A stretch of 64,000 bases of DNA from Artemia franciscana. Its lineage: Eukaryota; Arthropoda; Branchiopoda; Anostraca; Artemiidae. Position numbers and translations under genes: made by a program. Positions 4,166 to 48,511 of this stretch are shown piece after piece. Numbering within the stretch: position 1 is the first letter of the stretch; every line of letters starts with the position of its first letter. Location: assembly GCF_032884065.1 (NCBI RefSeq), contig NC_088867.1, positions 21,954,281-22,018,280 on the forward strand. The letters run 5' to 3'. The notes under the pieces are model-generated. The model ran no database searches. It worked only from the letters and a program-made list of their open reading frames with translations, and was not told the origin of the DNA.

Positions 4166-4189
4166 TGTTGTTATTCTGGGATTATTAAG

Positions 4190-6346: not shown

Positions 6347-6431
6347 TTATGTCACCATGTGTGAAAAACCAGAAAAAAATGTTTTCAAAAAGCTATTGAA
6401 AACTTGTTGAAACAGAAAAAAAGGCGATTCA

Positions 6432-8051
6432 TTAGCGTTTCTGTTTCGGCGGAGGAGGAGGCTCAAACGACAAAGGTAATAAATCAACATCAGGGTCGTC
6501 GGGACCACCCACGTATGTTTCATACGATGGAGTGTCGTGATACATAGCCCGGTAGCCGTCTTCCGTCCGCTCAACCACTTTAGCAAGTAGCTTGCCGTAG
6601 TGTTTACCCTTGACACCTACCGTGTTCACCATAATAAATCTTCCCACGAACTCTTCATCCCCATCAACACTAGCAGCAAAACTAACGTCTTGGGAAGAAA
6701 CTTCTTCATTCCAATCTGATGGAGTTGACAATTTGCCCGGTTTCTTGCAGCGTTTGCTGGGATATTTTATACCAACGCCATGTCTTGCGGCAACATATTT
6801 TACGGCGCATGTTCGGTCGATCCTATAATACCATTTAAGAGCTGCAGCTATGGTCTTACAGCTCGGCTTAGATATCCTGTTATGGGACTCGACGGCATTG
6901 GTAGTCGCAGGCAAGACGTCCCACTCTCTATCAGTGAATTCGGAAAGGGCCTTGCAAATCATCTTTAAGTTATTTGCCCTAGACCAAAACGAAACCCAGC
7001 TAGCAGCTTGACTCCATCCGTCACAGTATCGTAGAGCAGCAGCCGATATGAGACAAGGAAAGGCCTTCAAAAGCTTTTGGTCTGGCTTGCCAGACAAAAC
7101 ACTAAAACACAGTTCAGCTTGTTGTTTGTTAGGAGCAGATTCGAGCAGCCGAGTAACAGATTTGAATTCACAGACCTCGTCCTTAGTACTGCAGATTTTC
7201 TGAGATATTTTATTCACGGATCGCCAAAAGTGGACACGACATCCCCGTATTCGAATTAAGCTCTGCTGTATATCGTCACTTTCATTGAAAGTTGACTGGC
7301 TTTCAACGGCCGACTTGAGACCTTGCTTCTGTGCCTCAGAGAAATCAGCGATAACAATCAAGTTTACCGGACAATAGTCTGGATGTTTTTTCTTCACCTC
7401 GTCAAAGAGAACTCCAAAAGCACTCTTATAGGCGCCTCTATCCAAATTAGACATAAGCACCCTGGCAACAGTAACGTATTGCAAAATTTCGCTGTCATAT
7501 ACAACAACATTCAGCAGATATTTGAAAGGGTGGAACGTTCCAGGGTAGGTAACATCAGGAATAAAAAAATCAGCTTTTGCCAGGACATCGATGTGAATGT
7601 CGAACATTAAAAGACAAAGAGAATTGCCTTGATCCAAAGAGAAAAAATGTAGGTACTTTAGGGTGGCCTGCTGCATTTCAAGGTTGATCTGTTCGTCATC
7701 GTTTTGAAACAATGGTATTTCCTTAAGCATAGCCTCGTTAAAGGTTTCAAGAAATCGAGGAAGAGAATCAGGCCCCTTCCGCACTGCATCAACAAACTTT
7801 CTGACGCGGTCCAAATTAACCGCAGCTAAATTCCTTTCGCCCAAAATATAACCAACACCAACCCCTTTATGAATCTCAGAAACTGTCAATGTTGGGTCAC
7901 GTGCTACAGCCCCTACAATGTCAGAACGAACCCTAGAGACTAGACGGTTTTCCGGTGGCCGGGCGTGAGAGTGGAGTCGTCCATCATCATTGCTAAAGGA
8001 AATGACCCACCGTCGATGATCTTTCTTTTTGACAGGACAAACGAAAGCTAT
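6432..8051 (-). CDS. 3' part of the MULE gene: zinc-finger end and DDE transposase
   Basis: Plain DNA-transposon gene, downstream part. The open frame technically begins at 8105, but its first 18 codons are read from the inserted LTR; the native sequence starts at 8051. Counting from 8105: Cys23 and the pair HSH (45-47) complete a WRKY-GCM1-like Cys/His finger whose first cysteines lie at 25380-25390. Then comes a MULE catalytic core: Asp184 in DVTYPG, Asp254 in IADFSEA, a CRVH motif at 289-292, and Glu406 in TTNAVESHNR, the order D-D-(C..H)-E known from MULE transposases. The C-terminus ends in a proline run and KQKR. No stop or frameshift is visible in this half. The product should cut and join element ends, binding the long inverted repeats. 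The gene is interrupted only by the LTR element, whose CTAT duplication lies at both junctions. Confidence 0.85.
   Translation of the reverse strand: MAFVCPVKKKDHRRWVISFSNDDGRLHSHARPPENRLVSRVRSDIVGAVARDPTLTVSEIHKGVGVGYILGERNLAAVNLDRVRKFVDAVRKGPDSLPRFLETFNEAMLKEIPLFQNDDEQINLEMQQATLKYLHFFSLDQGNSLCLLMFDIHIDVLAKADFFIPDVTYPGTFHPFKYLLNVVVYDSEILQYVTVARVLMSNLDRGAYKSAFGVLFDEVKKKHPDYCPVNLIVIADFSEAQKQGLKSAVESQSTFNESDDIQQSLIRIRGCRVHFWRSVNKISQKICSTKDEVCEFKSVTRLLESAPNKQQAELCFSVLSGKPDQKLLKAFPCLISAAALRYCDGWSQAASWVSFWSRANNLKMICKALSEFTDREWDVLPATTNAVESHNRISKPSCKTIAAALKWYYRIDRTCAVKYVAARHGVGIKYPSKRCKKPGKLSTPSDWNEEVSSQDVSFAASVDGDEEFVGRFIMVNTVGVKGKHYGKLLAKVVERTEDGYRAMYHDTPSYETYVGGPDDPDVDLLPLSFEPPPPPKQKR
8048..8051. 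repeat. Left 4-bp target duplication (CTAT) of the LTR retroelement
   Basis: CTAT directly precedes the TG of the left LTR and directly follows the CA of the right LTR at 25372-25375. Four bases fits Ty3/Gypsy integrases. Confidence 0.85.
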
Positions 8052-9267
8052 TGTAACATATAGACCAGCCCCCCCCTTTATAAAATTCAGGACCAAATCC
8101 CTCATTCACATCCCCTTAGGAATCCTCAAATATAGGACCAAATCTCTCATCCATACTCTTCTAGGAACTCTTAAATTCAGGACTAAATTTCTCAGTCACA
8201 CCCCTTTAGTAAATTTCAATTTGAAAAAGGTTTGGATAAAATCATTTAGAATTTAACAGTTGCTAAATTTATCAAGTCTGCATGGTCCAACGCAATTAGA
8301 CTACATGCATTTAGATAAAACTACAATTAAAACTACAAATTAGACTACATGTATTTGCATGGTCCAACGCAATTAGACTACATGCATTTAGATAAAACTA
8401 CAATTAAAACTACAAATTAGACTACATGTATTTGCATAGTCCAACGCAATTAGACTACATGCATTTAGATAAAACTACAATTAAAACTACAAATTAGACT
8501 ACATGCATTTGCATGGTCCAACGCAATTAGACTACATGCATTTAGATAAAACTACAATTAAAACTACAAATTAGACTACATGTATTTGCATAGTCCAACG
8601 CAATTAGACTACATGCATTTAGATAAAAAAAAATGTTACTTAACAAAGTAACCAGTTATTCTGACCTATGGGTTTTTCTCAAAACCAAAAGAGAAATCCT
8701 TTGCCAAAGAATAGCTTTTGGATGCGCGATTAGTCACATGATCAAATATTACCAATAGTAGTGGAGGCCAACTTCCACAGGTCACTAAGCCTGTCTGGCG
8801 GGTGTTTGTTGATAGAAATCGAGCGTTAGATATATGAGCCCAATGCTAGGGCGAATAGTTTAGTTTTATGGAAGGATTCGAATGCATTAGATCAATTTTT
8901 CATGTTCACCTTTTAGTGCAATAAGACATTGAAGCTATTTTGTCAATAGTTGTATATTGTAAGTAAATAAACCTTATTGTATTTAATCATCTTCTGTCTA
9001 TGTATTAGGGCAGCAGGTACAGTTCCTCTAGCTTTCAGGCACGGTCCCAAGGGAATTTACATTTGTTTCAAGAGACCTCGAAAAACACCGAGATGGTTCT
9101 GTCTCCCAGGTTACCGGGGATTCTATACGAAGCCTTTTTATTTTATTAATAATTTAGCTCCCATATCCACATCAAACTATTAAGACTTAGAAAAGTCCCA
9201 AGCAACTCCACGCAAACCCCCTTTAAAATAAACTCAAGAAGATTTAACAAAAAACCACCCCGTAACA
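8052..9267 (+). repeat. Left LTR
   Basis: 1,216 bp, TG...CA. Differs from the right LTR by one C in a C-run near the start, one A/G change and a few bases near the end. Contains a 77-bp tandem repeat. The 68-codon ORF inside is present in both LTRs and is probably not a gene. Confidence 0.92.
8280..8630 (+). repeat. 77-bp tandem repeat inside the left LTR, about 4.5 copies
   Basis: Units begin 'gcatggtccaacgcaattag' (or 'gcatagtcc') at 8280, 8357, 8434, 8511 and a partial one at 8588. The same array is at about 24384-24733 in the right LTR. Each unit itself holds 'ttagactacatg' twice. Repeats in the U3 part of LTRs often act as enhancers; that is inference here. Confidence 0.9.
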
Positions 9268-9269
9268 TA

Positions 9270-9282
9270 TGGCGCGGTCGGG
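9270..9282 (+). other. Primer-binding-site-like sequence
   Basis: TGGCGCGGTCGGG two bases after the left LTR. TGG is complementary to the CCA end of a tRNA, as expected for a primer site. I could not match it to a particular tRNA. Confidence 0.6.
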
Positions 9283-9590
9283 TAAAGAAAGCAGGAAAAG
9301 GAACTGAAAGTACCTACGCAATTAATGCCTACTAACATAGACAAATATGATTACTTACATTTTAATTTTGATTTTTAAGTGCAGTGCAATTTTACCTAGC
9401 TTTTTGAATTTTTAGGTGCAGTGCGATTTTATTTCTATTTTTGCATTTTTTCTATATAGGTATACCCCATTCAAAAAATATCAAAATCTTTAAGAAATTA
9501 AAATAAAAAAAAAAACAGTAAAAATTAAAAAAAATTTTGAGATTATTTTAAACCGCATATTTAAAAAAAAAAAAAAAGTCTACAATAAAT

Positions 9591-10772
9591 ATGGACCAGG
9601 AAAAAGATGAAATATTAAAAGCGCAGCAAATTATTGCAACTTCGGTAGAAATTGCAAAATCATTACCAGAATATGAAGCAGATACGGACGTTGATCAATT
9701 CAACATCCATTTAGGGCAATTTGTGGAAATGACAAAAATTGACCTAAAAGTATTAAAAAATATGTTACTTTTAAGACTGAAAGGACAGGCGCTAACATTT
9801 CTAAAACAAATCGAAAACTCGATAGGTACAGAAGCAACCTCAACCATTAACTCAATAGAATTATTGCAACAGGCCTTCCAGAAAAGATTCATTGACACAA
9901 GTTCATTGAATAAACTAAAACATGGCCTAGTTACTTTCGAACAGACCCAAAACGTTCGTGAGTACTTGCATAAGGTTAGAATCGCAACAGAAGCGCGATA
10001 CGGTCCAGGAGAAGGGGAATTATATGAAAAAATCATACTAAATGCATTTAAGCAGGGACTAAACCCAAAGTTATACCGCCTTTTGATAGCTAAAAATATT
10101 GATAACCTAGAACTAGCAGTTCAGGAAATAGAAAGAGCCGTAGAAATTGATTCGATTGTCCTGCAGCATCAAAAAATGTCAATAAATGCTGTAGAAAGCA
10201 AAGCCCCTGTAAGATCAAGGGATTCCTCTCCGCGATTTTTCTCCCGAGAATCATCGCCCAAACCTGTTCGAAATCAAATTCGAACCACCACACCACCAAG
10301 ACAAGTACGTTTTGCCCCCAATAATCAATTAAGGGCACAAACTAACAATGAACCATTAAGGTGCTACACATGTAACCGATTAGGACACATCGCAAGAAAT
10401 TGTTTTGCAAACAATAATAATCGACCAAACATTAGGGGAACGGGTAACCGTTTGTCCAGGGGGACAAACTATAGTGGGTACGCCCCAAGAGGTGATCGAG
10501 GAAACACCTTTGTAACAGGAGGTAATTATCCCACCCAAAGTCGAAATTTCCAACGCAATACATATCAATATCAAGGAGGGTATCGTGGAAGAACAAATCA
10601 ACCCAGTAATAGTTGGAACAGAAATACAAGAGAAAATTACATCAGCCGACGGCAGCCATATAATAGCTCCATCTCAAGTAATAACCAAGGAACCCAAAAC
10701 AGAACAAATGAAAATTCTACATCTAACATCTGGGAATCCCAGGGAAACGATATAAGCCCCCAAAATTCGTAG
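9591..10772 (+). CDS. gag: gag of the LTR retroelement
   Basis: 393 codons. The first 190 residues are helical and contain the kind of sequence seen in Gypsy capsid regions. A single CCHC zinc knuckle, CYTCNRLGHIARNC, lies near residue 260, the nucleic-acid-binding motif of nucleocapsids. The C-terminal third is rich in Asn, Arg, Gln and Gly. It starts about 320 bases after the left LTR and is followed after 77 bases by pol in another frame. The frame is open over its length. Confidence 0.85.
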   Translation: MDQEKDEILKAQQIIATSVEIAKSLPEYEADTDVDQFNIHLGQFVEMTKIDLKVLKNMLLLRLKGQALTFLKQIENSIGTEATSTINSIELLQQAFQKRFIDTSSLNKLKHGLVTFEQTQNVREYLHKVRIATEARYGPGEGELYEKIILNAFKQGLNPKLYRLLIAKNIDNLELAVQEIERAVEIDSIVLQHQKMSINAVESKAPVRSRDSSPRFFSRESSPKPVRNQIRTTTPPRQVRFAPNNQLRAQTNNEPLRCYTCNRLGHIARNCFANNNNRPNIRGTGNRLSRGTNYSGYAPRGDRGNTFVTGGNYPTQSRNFQRNTYQYQGGYRGRTNQPSNSWNRNTRENYISRRQPYNSSISSNNQGTQNRTNENSTSNIWESQGNDISPQNS

Positions 10773-10849
10773 GACCAAAATTTGGTGGCAAAATAATTTA
10801 TAGGTCCCCCCCAGTAATAATACCATTTTTAAGTGCAAATAATAATAAG

Positions 10850-13800
10850 ATGTTACCAGTATTTGAAAATTTCAACGCAGGGAATATTTATTTCTCAGCC
10901 CTTATAGATTCAGGAGCAACAGTAAATGTGATAAATTCATCAGTATTTAATAAATTACCCAACTATATTAAACGACGAATGAGCAATATCTGTCCCAATT
11001 TATCAAGTGTAACCGGACACGACCTGGATGTGAAAGGCACTGTGTATCTAGCCTTGCGCAAGGATAACAGAAATTTTTATACTCGATTTATAGTTTGTAA
11101 AAATTTTCCATACGAAGCGATAATAGGCGCAAATTTTTTAAAATCAAATAAAATATTATTAGATGTAGCAAATTCAAAGTTTATCTACCCGACGGATACC
11201 ATATCGATGATAAATAACATACAAGCAAACAAAGTAAGGGAAAATATAGGTAACATGAAAGAGTATAGAAACAAACAAATTCAAGAAATTTGTTATTTAT
11301 GGAAAAAACTTGAAAAAATAAAAATTCCAGAAAAAAACCCAGCGGAGAATCTTCTAAATTCAATAAAAGAAGAAAATAACGAAAAATATTATGGATTTGT
11401 AGTGCGTAAAACAAAAATTCCCCCTAAATCAATGCAGAGGGTCCAAATATCACAAATGTTAGAACCAGTTAATGATAAAAATGAAATTTGGGTAGCATCG
11501 CCTTGGGAAGATCTCCCGAAATATTTAGTGTGTGAAGAACAAATTATAAATTACGAAAAGGGAGAAGGTTACATTTGGGTAACGAACACCCACGAAAACG
11601 ACCTAATTATCCTAAGTAAAGGTACATGTTTAGTAGAGATACAAGTAGTATCGGAATCCGACATTAATAATTGGAAAAATTTGGAAAAAAACTACGTGAA
11701 TAATATTAATGTTTACGTTGACAGAGAATATCCACTGACGCGATCTCAATTCCTTGAGAAATTCGAACTAAGTCACATAACCGACGTGTCATTAAAACAA
11801 AAATTATGCGACTTATTATGGGAATATAAAGATGTCTTTTCGACATCTGAAGATGACATAGGACTTATCCCATTTTATGAACACGCAATACAAACCACGG
11901 GGCCACCAGTCGCAAAACAACCATACAGAATTCCTTATAAACATAAGGAATGGCTAATAAACAAAATACATGAACTCGAAAAAAATCAAATCATAAGGCC
12001 AAGCATAAGCCCATACTCTGCCCCCGTTATTTTAGTCCCGAAAAAGAATAATGATCTTAGACTAGTGGTAGATTATAGAGCTTTAAATAAACAAGTAGTA
12101 AGTGACAAATTTCCCCTACCTAGAATAGACGAAATTCTAGACTCAATATCAAATAAAAATAAAATATTTACTTCCCTAGATTTGACACAAGGATATCATC
12201 AAGTAAAAATAGCTGAGGGCGATGTTTTTAAAACAGCTTTTTCAACAACAGAATGTGGTTCTTATGAATACTTAAGAGTACCATTTGGACTAAAAACTAG
12301 TTCGAGTGCATTGTGTAGACCCCTCCTTCATTTACTAAGAGGCCTAAATAACATAATTCATTTTGTTGATGACGTCATAGCTATGGACAAAGACGCGGAG
12401 GACCATTTAGAGACACTAGCAAAAGTGTTTGGGAAATTTAGAGAAGGCAATTTAAAATGTAGACCAGAAAAAGTAAATCTTTTTCAAACAAAACTAAAAT
12501 TTTTAGGAGTAGTTGTAACGCAAGGACAAATTTCCCCAGACCCTGAAAAAATAAAATCCGTTAAAAATATAAAGCCCCCCCAAACAATTAAACAATTACG
12601 AGGAATCTTAGGATTAATGAGCTATTTCCGAAAATTTATAAGAAATTACGCACAAGTTGCAAAACCTTTAACGGACCTCACGAGAGGCAACCCACAAAAA
12701 ATTGTGTGGTCTAATACAGCTCAGAATGCATTAGATCATTTAAAAAAGACTCTAACCTCAGAACCTATTTTATCGCTACCTGACTTCCAAACAGGACAAT
12801 TCGTTGTTACAACGGATGCCTCTAACAAGGGAATTGGGGCGATCCTCTCCCAAATAATAAATGGGGAAGAAAGAGTGATAGCGTACGCTTCTCGCACCTT
12901 AACTTCTGGAGAAAGTAATTATTCTGCTACAGAGCTTGAATTATTATCAATTATCCACCATTTGGACAAGTTCAGACATTATTTGGTAGGCAGAAAATTT
13001 AAACTGCGTTCAGACCACAAAAGCTTGCAATATCTGCAAACTTTCAAAAAGCCAACGGGAATACTCGCGAGATGGATTTTGAAAATCCAAGACTTAGATT
13101 ATGAATTTGAACATCTTAAGGGAAAACAAAATGCCCCATGTGATTATCTAAGTAGATTTCCAGATAATACCCCAGTAGAAAATGAAAATGAAGAAGTCAA
13201 CACGATAAAAGCAAAGTACGTTCCAAGAAAGAAAGGTTTAAAAATGAAATCGGCTGAGAATAATTCGGTTGAGAAGGAACAGAAAGACAGCCCACATTCC
13301 TTGAATTCTATAAAAATATATCAAAAGAAAGATAATACTTGTGCTGCTCTAATAGAATATTTCTTATATGATAAAGAGTTACCTGATGAAATGAAATCTT
13401 TTAAAAAAGAAATTGATAACTATTATTATGATTTCGACGAAAAAATACTATGTAGGATAATAACCGATACTGATAAAAGAAATCAAACTTCCGTTATACC
13501 AGTTTTACCCCAAATTTTGGAAAAACCCGCTTTTGAATTCTTTCATTCTGAAGTAGGAGGTCACTTGGGATTAGATAAGACATTCCACAGATTAAAACAA
13601 TACTTTTTCGTTACTTCAGCCTTGACAAAGTTAAAGAATTATGTTAATAATTGTGAAACCTGTAATTTAAGAAAAAATCCTCAAGTCTACCCGAATCCAA
13701 CGATAGGAAGAACGCCTACGGCCCGGTTTCCATTTGACATAGTCTCTTTTGATTTATATGGTACAAGTGGAGGATTACCCACTTCTAATGAAGGACATAC

Positions 13801-14926
13801 CTGTGTACTGTCAGTGATTGATCATTTTTCTGGTTTCACTTTTGCTAAACCATTAAAAAATCAAAGCGCCTATACAACGTCGAAAGCTCTCGCTAAAATA
13901 TTCCTTAATTTCGGTATCCCCAATACAGTATTAAGCGATAACGGCCCTAATTTTGTAGCGAAAGTAACCAAGGATTTAATGTCTTTCCTTCAAATAAATA
14001 AATTGGTATCGACCCCTTATCATCCACAGGCCAATGGGAAAATCGAGAACAGACACAAACTATTTTCTAATATTTTAAGTATTTACACGAAAGAAAATCG
14101 CAGGGATTGGCATGATACCTTACCTTATTTAACAAATGTAATAAATACAGCTTACTCCCAGGTCATTCGCGATAACCCATTTTATATATTATTCGGACGA
14201 GACTTTAGAATCCCTTATAATGAAATTATAGAGTCACGACAATTTTATAATGATTCTCAAGATTATAAACAAGAATTTATCAATAGAATGAGGAAAACTT
14301 ATAAGCTTGTAAAACAAGAAATAGAAAGATCAAACAGAAAGCAAGAAGCAAAAAATATTCCTAACGTCAAGGATAAACTCGATTTCCAAGTAGGAGATTG
14401 CGTTTACTTAAAGAACGAAAACAAACCGGACGGCAAGAAACTTTCGGACCGGTACCTAGGACCGTTAAGAATAATCAAAAAGTATGATAATAACGTTACA
14501 TTTAAACTATTAAAACCAAAAACAGGAAAAGTCTATAAAACCCACGTTAGTCGTATAAAGAGGGCAAAATTCACAGAAACATGGACCCCTCAACCTTCAA
14601 CATCAAATACCTCGGAGGACGAAAATCAACCACCTCGCTCTAGATTAAGTGAGCTTAAACCTTTTAATTTCAAACAAGGATATTTTGAAAACAGTAGCGA
14701 CGAAGAAAAATTTAATGAATTTCTAACCATGACAAATATGGTTACCCCCCAAAAAGTACCCCCGTTACGCGGAGACGGAGGAAAAGCGATTCCTCTTCCA
14801 GTGAAGAATCAGAAGAGTTGGACTATACAATTTCTCCACAAACGCAATTTTTCCCGGATCGAATTTCGACACCTTTTCCACCCAAACGTTTCCCCGATAA
14901 TTTGGTACACCCTGTCACGCCAATAG
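10850..14926 (+). CDS. pol: pol polyprotein: protease, reverse transcriptase, RNase H, integrase
   Basis: 1,358 codons. Seen in order: aspartic protease motif LIDSGATVNVI (near residue 20); reverse transcriptase with LRLVVDYRALN, TSLDLTQGYHQ and the active-site FVDD (near 505); RNase H with TTDASNKGIGA and LRSDHKSL; integrase zinc finger (HSEVGGHLG then CETCNLRK), a core with FDLYG, LSDNGPNF and the glutamate in ANGKIENRH, and a C-terminal GPLRIIKKY (GPY/F-like) module. RT before RNase H before integrase is the Ty3/Gypsy order. The frame is open throughout and looks whole. It overlaps the next ORF in a different frame. Confidence 0.92.
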   Translation: MLPVFENFNAGNIYFSALIDSGATVNVINSSVFNKLPNYIKRRMSNICPNLSSVTGHDLDVKGTVYLALRKDNRNFYTRFIVCKNFPYEAIIGANFLKSNKILLDVANSKFIYPTDTISMINNIQANKVRENIGNMKEYRNKQIQEICYLWKKLEKIKIPEKNPAENLLNSIKEENNEKYYGFVVRKTKIPPKSMQRVQISQMLEPVNDKNEIWVASPWEDLPKYLVCEEQIINYEKGEGYIWVTNTHENDLIILSKGTCLVEIQVVSESDINNWKNLEKNYVNNINVYVDREYPLTRSQFLEKFELSHITDVSLKQKLCDLLWEYKDVFSTSEDDIGLIPFYEHAIQTTGPPVAKQPYRIPYKHKEWLINKIHELEKNQIIRPSISPYSAPVILVPKKNNDLRLVVDYRALNKQVVSDKFPLPRIDEILDSISNKNKIFTSLDLTQGYHQVKIAEGDVFKTAFSTTECGSYEYLRVPFGLKTSSSALCRPLLHLLRGLNNIIHFVDDVIAMDKDAEDHLETLAKVFGKFREGNLKCRPEKVNLFQTKLKFLGVVVTQGQISPDPEKIKSVKNIKPPQTIKQLRGILGLMSYFRKFIRNYAQVAKPLTDLTRGNPQKIVWSNTAQNALDHLKKTLTSEPILSLPDFQTGQFVVTTDASNKGIGAILSQIINGEERVIAYASRTLTSGESNYSATELELLSIIHHLDKFRHYLVGRKFKLRSDHKSLQYLQTFKKPTGILARWILKIQDLDYEFEHLKGKQNAPCDYLSRFPDNTPVENENEEVNTIKAKYVPRKKGLKMKSAENNSVEKEQKDSPHSLNSIKIYQKKDNTCAALIEYFLYDKELPDEMKSFKKEIDNYYYDFDEKILCRIITDTDKRNQTSVIPVLPQILEKPAFEFFHSEVGGHLGLDKTFHRLKQYFFVTSALTKLKNYVNNCETCNLRKNPQVYPNPTIGRTPTARFPFDIVSFDLYGTSGGLPTSNEGHTCVLSVIDHFSGFTFAKPLKNQSAYTTSKALAKIFLNFGIPNTVLSDNGPNFVAKVTKDLMSFLQINKLVSTPYHPQANGKIENRHKLFSNILSIYTKENRRDWHDTLPYLTNVINTAYSQVIRDNPFYILFGRDFRIPYNEIIESRQFYNDSQDYKQEFINRMRKTYKLVKQEIERSNRKQEAKNIPNVKDKLDFQVGDCVYLKNENKPDGKKLSDRYLGPLRIIKKYDNNVTFKLLKPKTGKVYKTHVSRIKRAKFTETWTPQPSTSNTSEDENQPPRSRLSELKPFNFKQGYFENSSDEEKFNEFLTMTNMVTPQKVPPLRGDGGKAIPLPVKNQKSWTIQFLHKRNFSRIEFRHLFHPNVSPIIWYTLSRQ

Positions 14927-15666
14927 ACAGACGCTTTTCGTTACAAGATGAATTAAATAAGGCTATACAAACCCCTGGTGACATAGAGTCAGAAAAGGTC
15001 TACCAACCGCAACAAACATTGCGGGAGGCCATGGATCTTATTAATTACCCAATTAAAACTAGACAAAGTACATTTGATACTAATCCAGCTACAGATGAAC
15101 AACAATATCACGATATAACCGTCTCAAAGGCAAAACCAAAGGACTGGGTATCTTGGAAGGAAACCTTAATACAAACTCTTCCTCACCCCCCGGAAGACAT
15201 GGCTTTCAAGCAGTGGAGGCACCCCAAGAAGACATTTGAATCCTCCCAAAGCTCCCAAGAATCGTTCAATTCTCCCGAACCCAGAGATCAACAGGACGAG
15301 TCAATCAATAAACCCTCCACCTCACGAGGTGAAGAAATTTACGAAGGACAGGCTGGATCCACACCTAAATCTCAAACTTCTACTTCAAGAGAACCAGATA
15401 CTAAATCTACAACTAGTTCCTCAGATACTGAGAGTGAATCAGGCACAAATGAGCCCAAAGATGTGGAAGGAACAAGACCACAGAGTGCAACTGCCCAGGC
15501 TAAAAAGGCACAAATTAAAGGTCAAAAATTTCTTAAAAAACAATATAAAAAGTTTGACTTGATATCGCTAGCGAAGCCAAAGAAAAAAACCGAGTCTACC
15601 GAAGAGAAGATAACAACAAGGTCAGGCCGAGTTGTCAAAAAACCAGATAAATTAGATTATAAATAA
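14818..15666 (+). CDS. Charged Ser/Gln-rich ORF overlapping the end of pol
   Basis: 282 codons overlapping the last 109 bases of pol in another frame. Middle part rich in Ser, Gln, Glu and Thr; the C-terminus is basic and ends near TTRSGRVVKKPDKLDY, a motif often found at the tail of LTR-retroelement integrases. It may therefore be a pol tail reached by frameshifting, as some families do, or a separate protein. I cannot tell which. Confidence 0.6.
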   Translation: MDYTISPQTQFFPDRISTPFPPKRFPDNLVHPVTPIDRRFSLQDELNKAIQTPGDIESEKVYQPQQTLREAMDLINYPIKTRQSTFDTNPATDEQQYHDITVSKAKPKDWVSWKETLIQTLPHPPEDMAFKQWRHPKKTFESSQSSQESFNSPEPRDQQDESINKPSTSRGEEIYEGQAGSTPKSQTSTSREPDTKSTTSSSDTESESGTNEPKDVEGTRPQSATAQAKKAQIKGQKFLKKQYKKFDLISLAKPKKKTESTEEKITTRSGRVVKKPDKLDYK

Positions 15667-17314: not shown

Positions 17315-17485
17315 ACAAAATCTACAATTTTTTTTAGACGAATCACCAAAAGGACTCAAGGCGGAAAAAGGTAATTACTCATTAGATAATTAGCCTGCTT
17401 ATACGTGTGACTAATACTAACCAGGAAAACGCCGAGACAAAGAACCTTAAGTAATACCGACACCCTAGAAACCAACCAAGACCTA

Positions 17486-18508: not shown

Positions 18509-18692
18509 CTTTTCTAAATTTGTAGACAAGGAAGAACCGTGTAAAATAAATGAAAAATTTGGTTGGCAGAGAATAGAAACCAATACCTTAATAAACACGT
18601 CATACGCGATTCTAGAAGAAACCAGTACCAAGGTAACCGCCAATTAACTTACTAACCTGCTTATAACTAACAAAAATTGAAAAAGAAATATC

Positions 18693-19278: not shown

Positions 19279-22067
19279 AAGTAAAAAAAAAAAAAAATAT
19301 AAAATCAAATGAAGTAAAAACGTTTCAGGAACAGAAAGGAGAACGAAACAGGAAATATATGGCAATAAGGTAATGATTCTTCAAAATCAATTACGCTTAC
19401 CAAAACTAACATTACAAAAAAATATATATAACCTCCGTATAACTATCTTGATTCATATACTTATAGTAAGATAAATAGGTTTAGAAATTACCAAAATCGC
19501 CGGACCTGTGAACTTTACAAACTATTATAAATAAGTGTAATAGCATATAACACACGAAAAATCTAAACTTAACACTTAGCCTACTAACCTTTAGCCTACT
19601 ACTAAAAAAATAAAAAAAATTTTTTCTCTTCGCATAATTTTAACAAAAAATGTCCCAAGGTTATTTAACGAAATTCAATCTCTTACCTTATGCGATCTAC
19701 ATGGATTCACGACACGGTCCGAACTTTGAAAAATACTTCAAATGTCAAGCTTTGAAAATACAAGCTTTGAAAACATATCAAAACAAAATAACTATATTTG
19801 ATAAACATTTGTTCACAAAGTATACTTATGTATCTCGCTTAGATAACAGAATATAGTCTTCCCATCTAAACAACTGAACAATGTATTGTAAAACGAGACT
19901 TTTATATAATGATAAAAGAAAACAACTTTCTTTTTAAAAGAAACTTAAACACTTAACTTTTAATTAAGTAGCTAACTAAAGTTAACTACTATATTTATTT
20001 AGTATAAAAACCAAAAATAGTCGCATCATTCTATTGAAATATTGCTACTTACAAAGTAAAACATTGTTCTTAATTTGACTAGGACTCATTCCAAATGCAA
20101 AGTGCTGTAATAAAACCCTCAATTATAATCTACTTACATCTACCTGAGGTAGTGAATACATCAAATCTAAAGGTTTTTCGAAAAGCCATAATTATACGGC
20201 ACATCTTCAACCGACAAGATAATTGGGATAAGAGAGTATTTCTGCATAATGAGAAAATGCTTATTTTTTTTAACGACAAGATAATTGGGATAAGAGAGTA
20301 TTTCTGCATAATGAGAAAATGCTTATTTTTTTTAACGACAAGATAATTGGGATAAGAGAGTATTTCTGCATAATGAGAAAATGCTTATTTTTTTTTTCTT
20401 ATTCAATCATTCTTTAAGAAAAAAAAAATTAAAAGGAAACAAGTTGTGAAACTTTTCAAATTCTTAACCTAAAGTTTAACTCATTTTAAATAAGTACAAT
20501 ATAGATTTGTACTACAAAGGACTAGTAGCCTACAACTTATTAATTAAGTTAGGCTAAGATCCTACTAAATTTAAAAACGATTTAAGTCATAAGTCAAAGG
20601 TTGTTCTTCTTTTGCAACTAAGCCAGGTAGTTTTAAGCTAGAATGAGTTTAAATACGAAAGAACACTTAATTTATCGAAAGTCAAACTATTATACCTCAA
20701 TAAGACACCCTCTCAAATTCGTGCCAGTTTGGCATAGCTATAATTATCTCCCAAAGTGCATACCAGGAAAGCTGTGATCTATATCTTTGAGATATAGTTA
20801 CTAAGCCTTATAATCTTATTATATAATTACAAACCCTCATTTTAAGCTTTAGACTATATCAAGACATCTATAATTGGATTTAAACTAAATTCAAATTTAA
20901 ACCATAAATCAAAAATTTTTTTTGTAACAAAATAGGCTAATAAATTTCTACTCCATAACAAATTAGTAACTTAAGATTTAGGCCATAATAAACAAATAAT
21001 TATTTCATACTTTTATCTGATATTAAAAAAGAAAAGAAAAAAAGAATACTACTTTTAACTAAAATACTAAATTATCTAGTAGTATAACCCTAATAGCATT
21101 TACCACTGCCCTACCCCATATTTTATTAAATTAAAAAAAGAATATATATAATAATTTTTATTTGAACTGATATGGTAATGTTTACTCGCTTTGCCCTAAT
21201 TCCTTATATTAGCTAACAGATGGAAATAAAGAACTAACAGAAATAAAAGTTAATCCTCTACCAGACCTCAAAACGAAATTTCAACCAAGATCGCTAACAA
21301 CTTGTTATCATTTAAGGTTTTATTTCATTTCTTTTGTTTAATAGTAATATGACCATTACGATTCTGAGAACTACATATCCCCAATTTAAACAAAAAAATT
21401 AAGGTTTATTGAACAACTAATTTTTGTTAGCCTAACATCATTCGCTGTAAAAAAACACATACTATTAAATTCTTTAATTATTTTTTGCTCAACTATGCAT
21501 CTGAAAATTTTGCCTACCGCCCTGTAATCAACAAGGCTATACATATATGAAAATAATAAAGGTTTGGCACAAACTACGGCTAATGAAATGCATGGCAAAA
21601 AAATTGACTAAGGAAAAAATACATCTGTCAAAATAAAAAAAAAAAATATAAAGAAACCACTTTCCAAGGTATTTTGTCAAAGTTCCCAATACGTGACAAA
21701 TTTTAGGATTCTTAATTTTGTTTTTTTTTGTATATGGCCAACTAATGCCTAGGTTAATTTTAGAAGCTCCAATGATGGCCATAATATATTAGGTGAATAT
21801 GTGCAGTATTCATAAAGTTGGTCAAAACATTCGCTGGTGAAAAGTTGGAACATGTCAACAATAAATATGGATTTTTCTTGTAAAAAAATTCCCGTCAATA
21901 TCATAATGATATGAGTTCCTCTTGTTCGACAACCATAAGAACACAGAGAAAATTAGACTATGAAAAGTCTTAAGACGAAAAAGGACAAAATAATATAATT
22001 GAGGCACACGAGTTGAATAGAATCTAAAACATCCATATGGCCAAAAATAGAAAAGATTAAAGGTACA
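19279..22067 (+). other. ORF-poor tract in the env position
   Basis: About 2.8 kb with no long or domain-bearing ORF, in the place where an envelope gene would lie. Only a short tandem repeat (20210-20395) is structured. Either env is decayed beyond recognition or this is non-coding. Confidence 0.5.
20210..20395 (+). repeat. 62-bp tandem repeat, three copies
   Basis: Units beginning 'cgacaagataattgggataa' and ending in a T run occur three times in a row almost without change. Non-coding part of the LTR retroelement. Confidence 0.9.
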
Positions 22068-22352
22068 ATGCAATTAACAAAAATAAAGGAAGCGTTAGAT
22101 ATGCAAGTATCCTTATTCACTGACGAGGACCAAAGATTGAAATACGTCGAGAGCCAATACGGTTTGTTCTCACCAAACTCATGGTATAATATTATAATCA
22201 CAATATTCATGGTATTTCTTATTTCACTAACAATAAGAGCGCTACTAACAATTAACTATGGGAAAATACTGAAGAGAAAAAGGATAAATACTGATGCAAT
22301 TGAGGCACAGGAGTTGCATCAATTGAACCCTACTGCTCCTGATGATATTTAA
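22068..22352 (+). CDS. Small membrane ORF, env-tail-like
   Basis: 94 codons. A hydrophobic segment (IIITIFMVFLISLTI, residues about 41-55) follows YGLFSPNSWYN and precedes a basic cytoplasmic-type tail. This arrangement resembles the transmembrane end of envelope proteins of errantivirus-like elements, and the position just before the 3' region fits. The identification is structural only. Confidence 0.45.
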   Translation: MQLTKIKEALDMQVSLFTDEDQRLKYVESQYGLFSPNSWYNIIITIFMVFLISLTIRALLTINYGKILKRKRINTDAIEAQELHQLNPTAPDDI

Positions 22353-24140
22353 GCCATTTTAACAGGGAGGATGTAAAAATCCGGGGAAATTAAGAGGTCT
22401 TTCTCCGTACGTAACATCCTTTCCCTACTGTAGAAATATTGTTGGTGTATAACAGCTAGAAGGCTATGATACAACATACTGTATTACTTTTTGGCATATA
22501 CATCAAAAATACTCTTGGCAGAAAATCTTTATGTAAATATAGACCTCTAACAAGAACGAAAAAATTCGTTCTATCTTTTTATGTACAAGAGATTTAAGAG
22601 GTCATCTCTTGTAATTTTGCTGATCTGTTTCAGGAAAAGGGAAAAAACGTTCCAAGGCGTGATAATTGAAAGGCTATGATGCAAAATGTATTACTTTTCG
22701 ACTAATCACGCATTGGAGGTTCAATTTTTTTTTGATTAAAATATGATCTAAAACATTAAGACCTCTATATAATCTTACATATATATATAACCCTCTTTGG
22801 TGCCGTGTTCTTATATTTACATGTAATCATAATAATATAGTAATAGTGTAGTACCAATATAACTATTTTCAGTTGCTATATGACCAAATATACCTCACGT
22901 TACTTCAAATGTACCTGAGAATTATTAGAATTTAAAACTTCTTTTAAGAAATCGTACGTTCGATTTCACTTTCAATGTTTGAAAAAAAAAAATATAATAT
23001 TACTGTTATGCAATTATGTACTATTATTATGCAATTTAAAATTACAATAATGCTTTATATTATCGTATCACTAGTACCATTTTATATGTTAACAACATGA
23101 TTCTGCTTGGAAATTTTTATTACAGAATTTGGCATACTTCTAACATTGGCCAACAAACGTCATGGTCAAAGACTACAAAACACCTATCATGATTTATCAA
23201 CCACCGAAGAATGCCCAAGACACGTCTGATTCAACCGGAAAACTATCACCCATCTATCATTTCTGACTATACGATGTAGACTAGAGAAAACGAAACATCC
23301 AGCCAGCGGGTACGACAACATACCCACGCAAATACACCATTAGTGAACCCAATTCAGGAGATCCTAAGTCCTAATTTTTTAACTTAGGAATCACTTAACA
23401 AGTAAGGTGTTAGATAGTACTCCAGTCTATTGAATTAAATTAAGATAACGCAAAAGACAATTAAGATAACGCTTAAATGCAGAAGAGAGCGGGAGTAGAA
23501 CAGAAGAACTGTAGTACCGGCCGTACCTTTGTACTTAAACTGCTGGGGATAGGTGATTCTGAGTCCCGCGCTTCCCATTTTGTAAAAGCGTAAAAACAAA
23601 ATCTTTACTTTTGCTAAATGGTGATAAATTAGAAAATGACAATATATTTGTTCAATCAGTATATAGGGCAAGGACACGAAAATTGTGATTGGTGTGAAAC
23701 TAATATCCAGAACTAATAAGTGATGAACATTTAAAAAAAAAAATTGCCAAATAGTGAATCATAAATTTAAGTAAATAAAAGTGCCAGTGAAAATCTTATT
23801 ATATTACGTCGTGTATTTTTATTCTTATTGTTAAAATACCTGGGATCAATTAAAAATCAGATTAACAGGGAAAACAGTTAAAAGATATAAAGTAAAAATG
23901 AACAATTGGAACCAGGTATTCGAGTGTAATAACAGTTAATGTCAAGTGTTGTGTTTAAATAATTTTTTTTAGTGCTAGGTGCAGGACATATATATATTAG
24001 GTGTAGGAAAATATTTCTTAAATTTTAATCATCATTTACAAGGTTATGGAATTATAATAAAATTTTTATAAACAATAAGGAATAAAATGCAATATTTAAA
24101 GAGAGAGATTAGACTGATTGATGGGGACATCAATCTACAA
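22353..24140 (+). other. 3' untranslated tract of the LTR retroelement
   Basis: About 1.8 kb before the right LTR with no convincing ORF. Two related segments around 22440-22560 and 22650-22770 share 'aaggctatgat' and 'gtattacttttcg'-like sequence. Confidence 0.5.
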
Positions 24141-24153
24141 TGGGAAAGGGGAT
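24141..24153 (+). other. Polypurine tract
   Basis: TGGGAAAGGGGAT immediately before the right LTR, the expected place for the plus-strand primer. Confidence 0.75.
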
Positions 24154-24154
24154 A

Positions 24155-25371
24155 TGTAACATATAGACCAGCCCCCCCCCTTTATAAAATTCAGGACCAA
24201 ATCCCTCATTCACATCCCCTTAGGAATCCTCAAATATAGGACCAAATCTCTCATCCATACTCTTCTAGGAACTCTTAAATTCAGGACTAAATTTCTCAGT
24301 CACACCCCTTTAGTAAATTTCAATTTGAAAAAGGTTTGGATAAAATCATTTAGAATTTAACAGTTGCTAAATTTATCAAGTCTGCATGGTCCAACGCAAT
24401 TAGACTACATGCATTTAGATAAAACTACAATTAAAACTACAAATTAGACTACATGTATTTGCATGGTCCAACGCAATTAGACTACATGCATTTAGATAAA
24501 ACTACAATTAAAACTACAAATTAGACTACATGTATTTGCATAGTCCAACGCAATTAGACTACATGCATTTAGATAAAACTACAATTAAAACTACAAATTA
24601 GACTACATGCATTTGCATGGTCCAACGCAATTAGACTACATGCATTTAGATAAAACTACAATTAAAACTACAAATTAGACTACATGTATTTGCATAGTCC
24701 AACGCAATTAGACTACATGCATTTAGATAAAAAAAAATGTTACTTAACAAAGTAACCAGTTATTCTGACCTATGGGTTTTTCTCAAAACCAAAAGAGAAA
24801 TCCTTTGCCAAAGAATAGCTTTTGGATGCGCGATTAGTCACATGATCAAATATTACCAATAGTAGTGGAGGCCAACTTCCACAGGTCACTAAGCCTGTCT
24901 GGCGGGTGTTTGTTGATAGAAATCGAGCGTTAGATATATGAGCCCAATGCTAGGGCGAATAGTTTAGTTTTATGGAAGGATTCGAATGCATTAGATCAAT
25001 TTTTCATGTTCACCTTTTAGTGCAATAAGACATTGAAGCTATTTTGTCAATAGTTGTATATTGTAAGTAAATAAACCTTATTGTATTTAATCATCTTCTG
25101 TCTATGTATTAGGGCAGCAGGTACAGTTCCTCTAGCTTTCAGGCACGGTCCCAAGGGAATTTACATTTGTTTCAAGAGACCTCGAAAAACACCGAGATGG
25201 TTCTGTCTCCCAGGTTACCGGGGATTCTATACGAAGCCTTTTTATTTTATTAATAATTTAGCTCCCGTATCCACATCAAACTATTAAGACTTAGAAAAGT
25301 CCCAAGCAACTCCACGCAAACCCCCTTTAAAATAAACTCAAAGATTATTTAACAAAAACCACCCCGTAACA
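24155..25371 (+). repeat. Right LTR
   Basis: 1,217 bp, TG...CA, near-identical to the left LTR and followed by the CTAT duplication. Includes the same 77-bp tandem repeat array. Confidence 0.92.
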
Positions 25372-28300
25372 CTATTCGACAACCACAACACTTGTTTTTG
25401 AGCGGCTTATCTGGATGTTCGAGGCAAGTGTTTCTGCTGAAACAGTTCTGAAGAGAAAACTCACAACCTGCTGCTGTGCACTGTTTGACCCCAGCGCATT
25501 CATTGACACGGACTAAAACGCTAATCTGAGACTCGTCATTCGGAAGCATGACCACTTTCTCAAATTTTGGCATGCCTCCCTTCCTAGTCAGTTGCATATT
25601 ACCCATCAGGAAAACATAGTCGTCATCTCCGTCGTAAATTGTTTTCACGTCGTCAATAAAGAGAACCTCGGAAACACCCGAGTTTTCAGTATACCCTGGA
25701 TATTTGAGCATGCCAAGCGTTGCATTTTTCCAAGATCCAGAGAGTAGTGCTGCCAAAACTTTGTCAACGACGCCTTGTCTCGGCTTTCTAGAAGGCGTGA
25801 GTGAGGTGCAGACAGAAAAAGCGCTCTTTGAATACAGTACTGGTGGGAGCTTGACCACTTCTGGCAAAGACATTCCAAGCGAAAAAAATTTCCTGACCTC
25901 CCTCCTACCACCAAAAAACATTTCACGCAAGTGAATCGTTACGATACCTAGCGACGACGCTTGACGAATCAGACCTGAGAGTACATGCTGGCCTTTACCA
26001 CCAACGAAACTATGGAAAGGATAGGCTGTGTAATCTGCATCAACCAGATGTTCCCGCAGCCACTTGTCCGACCTGCCCATGAGAAAAGATGTTATATGCG
26101 TTTCCGAAACGGATAAAATTCCCCTATCATAAAACAGCTTCAAACAGTCTACAACTTTACGAATTTCACCGGAAGCATCCTGAAAACTCTGGTCATCACA
26201 ACTCTGGCAGCAGTTTTGAGCGTCGCCCTGGGGCAAGCTTTCGCCGAAATATTCGACCTGAAATTTACGGAGACAAAGGCCAGAGAAGCCAGAATAGGCG
26301 TATTTCAGAACATCCACAAAGTTGGTTAACATTGATTTTTTGTCTCCATCAGATGATCCGTCAAGCCAGAATACGCAGCGATTAATATCATACTTTTCAT
26401 TCAAGAGAATAACGGCCCTAGCAGGTTTTCCGTCGCGTCCTGCTCTACCTTGCTCCTGCATCCAAGACGACATGTTTTTTGGCAAGCCAAAACGAACAAC
26501 ACAACGAACGTTTGGAAGATTCAAGCCACAGCCATACGCAGTAGTGGCGCAGAGTATTTCAATCTCCCCATTTCTCATTGCAGCATGAAAGTGATTTTTA
26601 TCCAGTGATGAGCATTCTCCAGTGAACGCCGCAGCCTTGACTCCTAAACTGGAAATGGCCGAACATGCAGCATTGACCTCCCGCGCATACGAGAAATATA
26701 CTATGGCTAGCTGTCCATTAACTGTTCCAATGATCCTCTTGGCAGCTTCAGACCAACTTTCAACCCAATCCACACTACCTTCCAAACCTGAAGGTGGGCT
26801 GTAATGCGAAATCTCCAACCTTACATTTGGCCTATCAACAGACATTCGAACTACACAAGGGTTGTGAAGAAACTCCTCTATAATCAGTTTTTCGTCTTTG
26901 GGCAGCAGAGTTGCTGTCAATGCAAGGAAAGTTGCGCGAGGGAAAAAACTTCTCAAGCTCTTCAGTTCCAAAAAGGAACTTCTAAAGCCACACCATTCGT
27001 AGAGTAGATGGCACTCGTCAAAGACTACAAATTTCAACCGTCTGTCTAAAAGAGATCTTTGCCTCCGAACGAACCCTAACGATCCTTCCCGGCCCATAAA
27101 CCTTTCTGGAGTACCTACTAAAATCACAGGTTTATTTTCAGACAAATCTGAAATGGCGGTCACTTGTTGGTCGTATTCGACAGGAGCAATTTTTTCACCA
27201 ACAACAAAGGAATCGATACCACGTGAAAGTAAAAAATCACTTTGATCCTTGCGCAGTGCAATGGTTGGAACAACCAAAAGAGTAATACCTGATTCCATAA
27301 CAGATGGGATTTGATAGCAAATCGACTTTCCACTTCCAGTGCCTGAAACAACTAAAGCATCTTCTTTTTTTAGAATGTTAGTAATACTACGAATCTGAAA
27401 ATCTTTCAGCTGCGTGATGCCAAAATTTCGAAGTGCACAGCCAGCGACAGCATCCAAGATCATTTGAGACGGTTCCGTAGCAGGCACCATAACTTCTGAA
27501 ACCAATAGATGAGAGTCAGGTAGACCGGAACTGGAAAATTCGGAGTGAGAAACAGGTTGACTAAGGTCAGTCAATGGTAGATCTGACACAGAAAAATTCT
27601 CTTGATAGGAATCATTATTGGAATTGAGTATTGGAAATTGAATTGTGGAATTGAGAGCACAATCTGGCTGCATGAAAGCTTCAGGGGCAAGTTCAGTCAA
27701 CATTTTGCAAAGTTCGAAGACAGTGGGACGAGCTTTCGGCTCAAACGCGCAACATTTCAGAAAAACTTCTTTTAGGGGACTTGACATATCTTCATGACAG
27801 GGCAGCACCCCACTCCTAATTTTATTGACTATCACGTCAACAGGAAAACCATCCTTTTCGAAGGGAAACTTGATCGTAAAATCATGTAGCTCATATAGAA
27901 ATATTCCAAAAGAAAACAGGTCACAAGCAAAGGTAGGACGTTTGTTGTCGCATCTTTCTGGGCTCATAAAACATATTGTCCCACCCCGATTTTGCTGAGA
28001 CTGATTTTGAGTAGTTGAAGTAACGACTGATGTCACAAGTGATAATCGGCTTTCTCCAAAATCTGCTAATTTAAAGAGCCAAGAGTCGTCGTGTCCCCTT
28101 TTTTCAGTGACCAAAACGTTAGCCGATTTGAGGTCAGCATGGATGATCTTTATCGAGTGAAGATACCTTAAGCCCTCTGAAACCTGACAAGCCATTGAAC
28201 TAAATAAGACAGGAGCGATTTCCCTGCTCACTTCACTACTCAAGACGGACAGGAAACCAAGAATTTGCCTAGCATTGTTAAAAGAATGTGGATTCCCATC

Positions 28301-28633
28301 TTCATCCGTCAAAACTTTCTCGCAGTATTCGAGGCCGAGGGTCATCTCCTTCAAACAGACAAACCTAATCCCAACAACGTTTTTATGGCGTGTTTTATAA
28401 ATGGCAGCAGCTTCCTTTAAAATAACTGACTCGTATTCGGCATTACCGCGGATTCCTATATATTTTTTTAAGGCTACTTTTTGTCCGCCAAAATGACCCA
28501 CAGAAACCTCACAAGCCCTCCCACCCCCAATTACTATTTCTGAAGGTGGAACGGAGTCGATCAACAATTCTTTTGGTACGTCCAGACTTGATCTGGGCTT
28601 AGCAAAACAGCGCACTTTCAAGCTGAAAGCCAT
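25372..28633 (-). CDS. 5' part of the MULE gene: protein kinase, RecQ helicase, zinc finger start
   Basis: About 1,087 codons from an ACCATGG start at 28633. Residues 33-310, kinase: glycine loop GGGRACEVSVG, VALKKY lysine, HADLKSANVLV catalytic loop (HAD for HRD), DFG, SPER for APE, DLFSFGIF. Residues 395-815, RecQ helicase: FGITQLKDFQ (motif 0), SGTGSGKS (Walker A), FDECH, LALTAT, ATTAYGCGLNLPNVR, QEQGRAGRDG (motif VI), then a zinc module CLRKFQVEYFGE...CCQSC. Residues 825-905 look like the RQC winged helix. A Cys-rich end (CTAAGC...CLEH...CCGC) begins a finger that finishes beyond the LTR insertion at 8051. All catalytic residues I can check are present. The frame is also open upstream to 28714, but the Kozak context favours 28633. 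A T-rich acceptor-like TTCTTTCCAG lies near 28675. Confidence 0.85.
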
Positions 28634-48357: not shown

Positions 48358-48358
48358 A

Positions 48359-48505: not shown

Positions 48506-48511
48506 GATAGA

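What the first reader, a model, noticed from the sequence alone, without database searches (positions are those of the whole stretch)
6432..28633. One transposon gene fuses a protein kinase, a RecQ-type helicase, a zinc finger and a MULE transposase
The two minus-strand frames (25372-28633 and 6432-8051) are one gene interrupted by an LTR element whose 4-bp duplication marks both junctions. Kinase motifs (VALKKY, HADLKSAN, DFG), full RecQ motifs (SGTGSGKS, DECH, QEQGRAGRDG, zinc module) and the MULE D-D-E set (DVTYPG, IADFSEA, TTNAVESHNR) are all seen. MULE transposases with zinc fingers are known. I know of no described family joining a kinase and RecQ to one. A helicase could help end processing or fork handling, and a kinase could signal to repair or cell-cycle control; both are inference.
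Basis: partly seen in the sequence, partly recalled or inferred. Interest (0 to 1): 0.92.

Follow-up and report, generated by a model that had tools for sequence, protein, structure and literature searches.

The report
Transposase fused to kinase and helicase
In the brine shrimp genome a family of jumping genes encodes one 1,625-residue protein that joins a protein kinase and a RecQ-type DNA helicase to its cut-and-paste enzyme, a combination that the searches made here did not find described.

Summary
The finding holds. The host is Artemia franciscana (contig lengths equal those). The two minus-strand frames are one gene, split by an LTR retroelement (8052-25371; CTAT duplication). Eight of eight other copies searched show the unsplit site. 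One copy (contig C5172) has a single 1,625-residue frame: kinase, RecQ, zinc finger, DDE transposase. In the genome 17 of 25 matching loci hold both halves, 16 contiguously; outside the element the kinase finds only 25-43% relatives. The carrier is a DNA transposon: 9-bp duplication GTATAGGGA (2408-2416, 33319-33327), ~1.5-kb inverted repeats, body ~13.6 kb, short gene-less relatives. Changes shared by copies show constraint on kinase (0.40), transposase (0.36) and, less clearly, RecQ (0.52). It is most probably a Mutator-like element (MULE): motifs and duplication fit, but no MULE profile match reaches its cut-off. RecQ in a transposon has a precedent (Academ); a kinase, or kinase plus RecQ, joined to a transposase appeared in no search here. 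Biochemical roles are inferred; expression is untested.

The parts
2417..33318 (-). whole DNA transposon (MULE-type), 30,902 bp here including the 17.3-kb LTR insertion; its own body is about 13.6 kb; strand given is that of the gene
   Evidence: 9-bp duplication at both ends, inverted repeats; other copies align over parts of the same span
2408..2416 (.). target-site duplication GTATAGGGA, left
   Evidence: on the + strand the 9-mer occurs in the window only at 2408 and 33319
33319..33327 (.). target-site duplication GTATAGGGA, right
2417..3897 (.). left terminal inverted repeat (~1.5 kb; 81% identity to the right one over the aligned 2409-3897), with tandem sub-repeats
31820..33318 (.). right terminal inverted repeat, with tandem sub-repeats
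25373..28633 (-). first part of the gene: residues 1-1087 (kinase, RecQ, middle region, start of zinc finger)
   Evidence: P0001
6432..8051 (-). second part of the gene: residues 1087-1625 and stop (end of zinc finger, DDE transposase, C-terminal tail); the isoleucine codon at the junction lies in the CTAT duplication
   Evidence: P0002; junction
27689..28546 (-). protein kinase domain, residues 30-315 (K56, E74, HAD loop, DFG)
   Evidence: Pfam 6.4e-29; residues
26189..27448 (-). RecQ helicase core and zinc-module region, residues 396-815 (SGTGSGKS, DECH, QEQGRAGRDG)
   Evidence: NCBIfam TIGR00614 over cut-off; match to solved RecQ-type helicases
25841..26188 (-). RQC-like stretch, residues 816-931
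   Evidence: alignment to chain 1oyw_A runs to residue 931; the name RQC is recalled
25373..25498 (-). cysteine-rich zinc finger, first part (residues 1046-1087)
7965..8051 (-). zinc finger, second part (C1085-x5-C1091-x21-H1113-x-H1115 is split by the LTR insertion)
   Evidence: these C and H kept in P0062 and P0064
6888..7556 (-). DDE catalytic span, residues 1252-1474 (D1252, D1322, CxxH 1357-1360, W1463, E1474)
   Evidence: D, D, CxxH and E invariant against a 34%-identical relative
8052..25371 (+). LTR retroelement inserted in the gene (LTRs 8052-9267 and 24155-25371)
8048..8051 (.). CTAT, left duplication of the LTR insertion
25372..25375 (.). CTAT, right duplication of the LTR insertion

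Best explanation
The window holds a DNA transposon of the Mutator-like (MULE) kind whose single long gene encodes one 1,625-residue protein: TKL-like protein kinase, RecQ helicase with an RQC-like stretch, zinc finger, DDE transposase. Shown: the fusion is one frame in an uninterrupted copy; the same fusion recurs at many loci; the element makes 9-bp target duplications; kinase and transposase, and less clearly RecQ, were under purifying selection while it spread. Inferred: the zinc finger and C-terminal half bind the inverted repeats, and the DDE site cuts both ends and joins them to staggered target cuts. Inferred, about 0.5: the RecQ part unwinds DNA at the ends, most usefully the hairpins that ~1.5-kb inverted repeats with sub-repeats can form, or helps strand displacement in end or gap repair. 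Inferred, about 0.35: the kinase phosphorylates the element's own protein or host repair or checkpoint factors so that cutting is timed to S phase or coupled to repair.
For: One open frame of 1,677 codons (1,625 residues from the ATG) through all domains. 17 of 25 loci with both halves, 16 contiguous. Target duplication at 9/9 in 3 and 8/9 in 2 of 9 end pairs, against 2 of 72 mispaired ends, those two being one reciprocal exchange on C6. At least 7 short end-to-end pairs of 2.0-2.8 kb; the 2 read in full have no protein match. Ratio of non-synonymous to synonymous rates for changes shared by two or more of 19 copies (not every copy covers every domain): kinase 0.40 (0.21-0.75), RecQ 0.52 (0.35-0.81), transposase 0.36 (0.27-0.50); singletons 0.79, 0.65 and 1.07; linker 0.91 (0.30-4.57, unresolved). 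All 26 checked catalytic and zinc residues equal the reference in the window copy and 3 other full-length copies. DDE spacing 70 and 152 and a CxxH motif fit published MULE ranges.
Against: No transcript or protein evidence was available. The transposase has no Pfam match; profile comparison with a second Artemia MULE was not significant. Of 25 loci five have only kinase/RecQ matches and three only transposase. For RecQ the contrast between shared changes and singletons is weak (0.52 vs 0.65), and with the intact copy and ten old copies it vanishes (0.55, interval 0.33-1.02, vs 0.58). Two old copies (C2303 and C593) share asparagine at the kinase DFG aspartate, so a kinase-dead lineage may have been copied. 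The RecQ zinc module is incomplete and the kinase has HAD in place of HRD. No fused relative was found outside Artemia-like sequence.
Confidence: 0.75

Rival explanations
1. It is an Academ-type (AcademH-like) transposon rather than a MULE. Academ elements are reported to carry a RecQ helicase, and AcademH makes 9- or 10-bp duplications, so the RecQ part would be the expected one and only the kinase would be new.
For: Passages: 'RecQ Helicase in Academ' (PMC3627910); AcademH 9 or 10 bp duplications (PMC10045372). The transposase has no Pfam MULE match of its own.
Against: Motif order and spacing, the CxxH and the long inverted repeats fit MULEs. The 34%-identical relative P0063 matches Pfam MULE, though under the cut-off. 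None of the 55 non-Artemia hits aligns to the transposase with an E-value below 0.8. The AcademH paper itself was not held.
Confidence: 0.13
2. Kinase and RecQ are passengers: a captured host segment, as in Pack-MULEs, that is copied along but does nothing for transposition.
For: MULEs in plants capture genes. RecQ shared changes are hardly fewer than singletons, and its interval reaches 1.02 when only old copies are used. Two old copies share a lost kinase DFG aspartate.
Against: The segment is in frame with the transposase in one long open frame. Shared-change ratios for kinase and RecQ over all copies lie below 1. No close host gene was seen: other kinase matches are 25-43% identical (72 of 72 candidates scored), other RecQ matches 35-50% (42 of 105 scored).
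Confidence: 0.15
3. The protein is made as one chain but is mainly a host-directed effector (kinase and helicase acting on silencing, repair or cell cycle) and the transposase part works alone.
For: Transposase-only loci exist (C5186 and two on C7).
Against: All three transposase-only loci are 5'-truncated in the stretches fetched and carry E1474K, so they look dead rather than autonomous.
Confidence: 0.1
4. Assembly or annotation artefact: neighbouring genes joined by chance.
For: Public gene models of two copies are chimeric with other domains (PF00566 and PF00078).
Against: The same junction recurs at 16 contiguous loci on 13 contigs; two proteins from other sources, 86-88% identical, span parts of it.
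Confidence: 0.01

Closest known systems
Mutator-like elements (MULEs), e.g. Muta1 of Aedes aegypti and the arthropod MULEs of PMC13359780
   Same: DDE with CxxH and W, zinc finger before the catalytic domain, 8-11 bp duplications, inverted repeats that can be long
   Different: Published arthropod MULEs are 1.4-10.0 kb with single frames of 313-1136 aa and repeats of 13-1193 bp; here about 13.6 kb, 1,625 aa, ~1.5 kb, plus kinase and RecQ. 'kinase' and 'helicase' occur 0 times in that paper's main text
Foldback-like MULEs (Tm1 of root-knot nematodes; FB4 of Drosophila)
   Same: long or composite inverted repeats, 9- or 9-10 bp duplications, non-autonomous or MITE-like members (passages)
   Different: 0 occurrences of kinase or helicase in the Tm1 paper and in PMC8277862; Tm1 encodes a Phantom-like transposase
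Academ / AcademH transposons
   Same: a transposon with a RecQ-type helicase; AcademH makes 9 or 10 bp duplications (passages only)
   Different: no kinase known to me (recalled); the transposase here carries MULE-type motifs; not compared directly because the paper was not held
ULP1-carrying MULEs (Kaonashi / Vandal)
   Same: a MULE that acquired and kept a regulatory enzyme domain (passages)
   Different: a ULP1 domain in one of three coding genes of its element group, not a kinase-helicase fused to the transposase
MULEs with OTU or SET domains (table of PMC6446971)
   Same: extra enzyme domain listed for MULE groups
   Different: no kinase or helicase in that main text (0 occurrences)

Membership tests
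MULE (Mutator superfamily) | 8-11 bp target-site duplication | tested here: met
   9 bp; 5 of 9 end pairs match at 8 or 9 of 9, 2 of 72 mispairs do
MULE (Mutator superfamily) | terminal inverted repeats, often long | tested here: met
   ~1.5 kb, 81% identical
MULE (Mutator superfamily) | DDE triad with published spacing, CxxH and W between second D and E | tested here: met
   D1252, D1322, C1357/H1360, W1463, E1474; spacings 70 and 152; which W corresponds to the published one was not settled
MULE (Mutator superfamily) | zinc finger before the catalytic domain | tested here: met
   C-x5-C-x21-H-x-H plus further cysteines, by pattern only, no profile match; likeness to the WRKY-GCM1 pattern is recalled
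MULE (Mutator superfamily) | match to Pfam MULE PF10551 over its cut-off (a detection aid, not part of the published definition) | tested here: not met
   none for P0002, P0003, P0062; the relative P0063 at E 0.037, 14.9 of 27.6 bits; profile comparison with another Artemia MULE not significant. Profiles miss divergent members, so this lowers the claim without settling it
RecQ helicase | NCBIfam recQ_fam over cut-off, helicase motifs | tested here: met
   231.4 vs 219.8 bits; motifs
RecQ helicase | four-cysteine zinc module | tested here: not met
   only C787 and C808 align with template cysteines; C809 and C812 nearby. Not all RecQ helicases keep the module (recalled), so RecQ-like activity is not excluded
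Protein kinase (TKL-like) | Pfam kinase over cut-off with catalytic K, E, D, N, D | tested here: met
   101.5 bits; residues as in the reference in all 5 other recent full-length copies, but changed in several old ones; HAD in place of HRD. TKL group is recalled knowledge applied to TAK1, MLK and RIPK1 as best solved kinase matches
Academ / AcademH | Academ DDE transposase | not testable with these tools
   no Academ profile or sequence at hand; the paper is not held
Foldback-like MULE | composite long inverted repeats with internal repeats | tested here: met
   tandem units of 40-91 bp in both repeats

The most novel reading that the evidence does not exclude
A transposon that carries cutting, unwinding and phosphorylation in one polypeptide, with the kinase used to tie excision to the host's DNA-damage or cell-cycle state and the RecQ part to resolve its own hairpin-forming ends: a self-contained, self-regulating transposition machine, and a DNA transposon whose protein kinase is part of the transposase itself.
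Probability: 0.3. Interest if true: 0.9.

Novelty: new variant of a known kind. Interest (0 to 1): 0.72.

Why it matters
Transposases are usually lean enzymes that leave unwinding, repair and timing to the host (general knowledge). A family that fused a kinase and a RecQ helicase to its transposase and kept them while it spread would show an element taking over those steps. It also makes an old question testable in one protein: how elements with very long inverted repeats deal with hairpins and with repair of the donor site. RecQ helicases guard genomes against such structures (general knowledge), so a selfish RecQ is of interest to repair biology too.

Tried and rejected
Host-gene origin of kinase or RecQ: no close host copy seen (one search scored 42 of 105 candidates). 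Fused relatives in other species: none among 58 hits, 3 and 1; each scored only the 8,000 candidates sharing most words, so a distant fusion could be missed. The viral-contig scan with P0001 gave no relative; with the alignment A1 it could not be run. Plasmid search with P0002: no match. Solved structures for the transposase: nothing credible. Profile comparison with a second Artemia MULE: not significant. First selection estimate used protein-frame alignments that run out of frame in decayed copies, which inflates some ratios (L020 kinase 0.67, transposase 0.63); it was redone on nucleotide alignments, and one search is the one reported. A RecQ tree was planned but not built; only pairwise matches were read. 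Papers: PMC13359780, parts 1 and 2 of 5 of the text and a word search; PMC6446971, one section part and passages; PMC8647823, PMC13317346, PMC2528002, PMC10799480, PMC10045372, PMC3985635, PMC3310237, PMC8277862, PMC5225508, PMC3627910 and PMC3169594, passages only; PMC7165386 not held; all others, search listings only.
Full report
Host. Two proteins found are named Artemia franciscana and lie on contigs of 41,777,601 and 64,441,807 bases, the lengths of C14 and C7 of the window's genome.

Observation. The first (P0001, 1,087 aa) scores as protein kinase (Pfam 6.4e-29), DEAD (1.2e-22), Helicase_C (2.3e-16) and, just under its cut-off, RecQ_Zn_bind; NCBIfam's recQ_fam is over its cut-off, and the alignment to the solved helicase 1oyw_A runs to residue 931, past the helicase core. 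The second (P0002, 539 aa) has no Pfam or NCBIfam match and no credible solved relative.

The split. An LTR element lies between them (8052-25371), with LTRs of about 1.2 kb (1,216-base stretches aligned with 4 mismatches and 4 gap columns; the stretches compared were one or two bases off the exact ends) and the 4-bp duplication CTAT. It has gag and pol frames in the order protease, reverse transcriptase, RNase H, integrase (the protease match is below its cut-off). In 8 of 8 other copies searched the site is unsplit. The insertion cuts the zinc finger.

One gene. On contig C5172 the whole reads as one frame of 1,677 codons, 1,625 residues from the ATG. From the match tables (48 and 37 matches; the tool calls such counts lower bounds) I grouped 25 loci: 17 have both halves, 16 of them contiguous (13 contigs) and the window with the LTR element between; five have only kinase/RecQ matches and three only transposase. 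Of the five, C10 and C1010 are RecQ fragments at 35-39% identity, probably host genes; C16:34984992 is a RecQ fragment at 45-50%; C593 ends at residue 844; C12 jumps from residue 670 into the inverted repeat. The three transposase-only loci are 5'-truncated in the stretches fetched and all carry lysine at the catalytic glutamate. C4990 and C5841 look like second assembly copies of C137:53513 and C668 (inference), so independent joined loci may be 15. The kinase domain alone finds 22 matches in the genome (72 of 72 candidates scored); 18 lie in copies of the element and the other 4 are 25-43% identical.

The carrier. Inverted repeats of about 1.5 kb (81% identical) enclose the gene and hold tandem sub-repeats. 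Directly outside lies GTATAGGGA on both sides; on the + strand that 9-mer occurs nowhere else in the window. A search with the terminal 124 bases gave 41 matches (143 candidates, 40 scored) and at least seven pairs only 2.0-2.8 kb apart; the two of these that were read in full have no match to the protein. Of nine end pairs tested, three match at 9 of 9 and two at 8 of 9; C14, C2 and the two on C6 do not. Of 72 mispaired ends only two match at 8 or more, and they are the two C6 elements, whose duplications are exchanged with each other. So the family moves by making 9-bp staggered cuts.

What kind of transposase. D1252, D1322 and E1474 (spacing 70 and 152), CxxH at 1357-1360 and W1463 fit the MULE descriptions in PMC5225508 and PMC13359780. 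P0063, 34% identical over 299 aligned columns, keeps D, D, CxxH and E and matches Pfam MULE at E 0.037, under the cut-off. Artemia holds a second, ordinary MULE family (18 matches over cut-off), of which the one protein scanned has a MULE match and no kinase or RecQ; profile comparison with it was not significant, only the CxxH stretch lining up. I rate MULE at about 0.8 and Academ-like at about 0.13. The rival is serious because Academ is reported to have a RecQ helicase (PMC3627910) and AcademH to make 9 or 10 bp duplications (PMC10045372).

Selection. Nineteen copies were aligned to the intact coding sequence by nucleotide; not every copy covers every domain. For changes whose rarer allele is in two or more copies (read as mostly changes in the spreading lineage) the ratio of non-synonymous to synonymous rates is 0.40 (0.21-0.75) for the kinase, 0.52 (0.35-0.81) for RecQ, 0.34 (0.19-0.61) for the middle, 0.32 (0.10-1.22) for the zinc finger, 0.36 (0.27-0.50) for the transposase, 0.35 (0.21-0.61) for the C-terminal tail and 0.91 (0.30-4.57, unresolved) for the linker. 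Singletons, read as mostly decay after insertion, give 0.78 overall: 0.79 for the kinase, 0.65 for RecQ, 1.07 for the transposase. Asking for three or more copies gives 0.34, 0.36 and 0.34 for kinase, RecQ and transposase. With the intact copy and ten old copies only: 0.37 (0.18-0.84), 0.55 (0.33-1.02; singletons 0.58) and 0.41 (0.30-0.56) (all). So kinase and transposase were kept; RecQ probably too, but its contrast with decay is weak. In the window copy and three other full-length copies all 26 checked residues equal the intact copy; a further one (C668) has one RecQ motif-VI arginine changed. Against constant kinase activity, two old copies (C2303 and C593) share asparagine at the DFG aspartate, and three (C18, C593 and C11) share serine at a glycine-loop position.

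Spread outside. The protein database gave the window's own protein, two named Artemia proteins, then RecQ or kinase proteins at about 34% identity or less over stretches of 100 residues or more. None of the 55 non-Artemia hits aligns to the middle part, and none to the transposase below E 0.8. Two proteins from sources with no organism named cover parts of the region from the end of RecQ through the transposase at 86-88% identity (P0062 from residue 921, P0064 residues 768-1140); they may come from other Artemia or older copies (inference). Nothing shows the fusion outside Artemia-like sequence.

How it most likely works. Shown: one frame, mobility with 9-bp duplications, constraint as above. 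Inferred: the zinc finger and DDE part bind and cut the ends; RecQ unwinds structured ends or helps repair; the kinase sets timing or recruits repair. No expression data were at hand.

Literature. Ten searches of the full-text library listed no paper on a kinase-RecQ-transposase fusion; the listings were capped (for example 20 of 45, 20 of 85 and 10 of 139 papers) and I opened 13 papers in part. A 2026 survey of MULEs in 4,268 arthropod genomes has 0 occurrences of kinase, helicase, RecQ or Artemia in its main text (its supplements were not read) and gives ranges that this element exceeds in length, frame and repeat size.

Noticed in passing
window 17411-18508 (+) and 18778-19278 (+), inside the LTR element: Beyond gag and pol the LTR element has a frame with a SOCS box (1.2e-6) and one with an AKAP7-type 2H phosphoesterase domain (9.2e-16): unusual extra genes for a retroelement.
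   Followed up: no
L047-L050 (G000 C6:26228377-26230820 and C6:26716162-26718601): Two short elements about 490 kb apart carry each other's target duplications (GAAATTTGC and GTAAAATCC exchanged), as if their ends had recombined.
   Followed up: partly
L061, L062, L063: All three transposase-only loci carry lysine in place of the catalytic glutamate E1474, perhaps one dead lineage that was copied.
   Followed up: no
L018 and L008 (G000 C2303, C593): Two old copies share asparagine in place of the kinase DFG aspartate.
   Followed up: no
L077 and L075 (G000 C15, C7): A second MULE family of Artemia with frames up to 1,368 codons; the one protein scanned has no kinase or RecQ.
   Followed up: partly
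window 29078-29416 (-): A 112-aa open frame upstream of the gene, also present in the intact copy with four differences; possible first exon or chance.
   Followed up: no
window 2461 and the same distance from the right end: TATATAAAAAGG, a TATA-like sequence, about 45 bases inside each end of the element.
   Followed up: no
window 46830-47963 (+): Uninterrupted actin frame of 377 codons (Pfam 1.6e-147).
   Followed up: no
window 40328-42529 (-): Reverse transcriptase frame of non-LTR type (the type is my reading).
   Followed up: no
window 48001-56000: Strong AT skew (0.41-0.57) over 8 kb with no frame of 150 aa except a 154-codon one at 50347-50811.
   Followed up: no
P0005 and P0006 (Artemia gene models QYM36_003506, QYM36_015238): Public gene models of copies of this element are chimeric with other domains: PF00566 (TBC, name recalled) and PF00078 (reverse transcriptase).
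   Followed up: no
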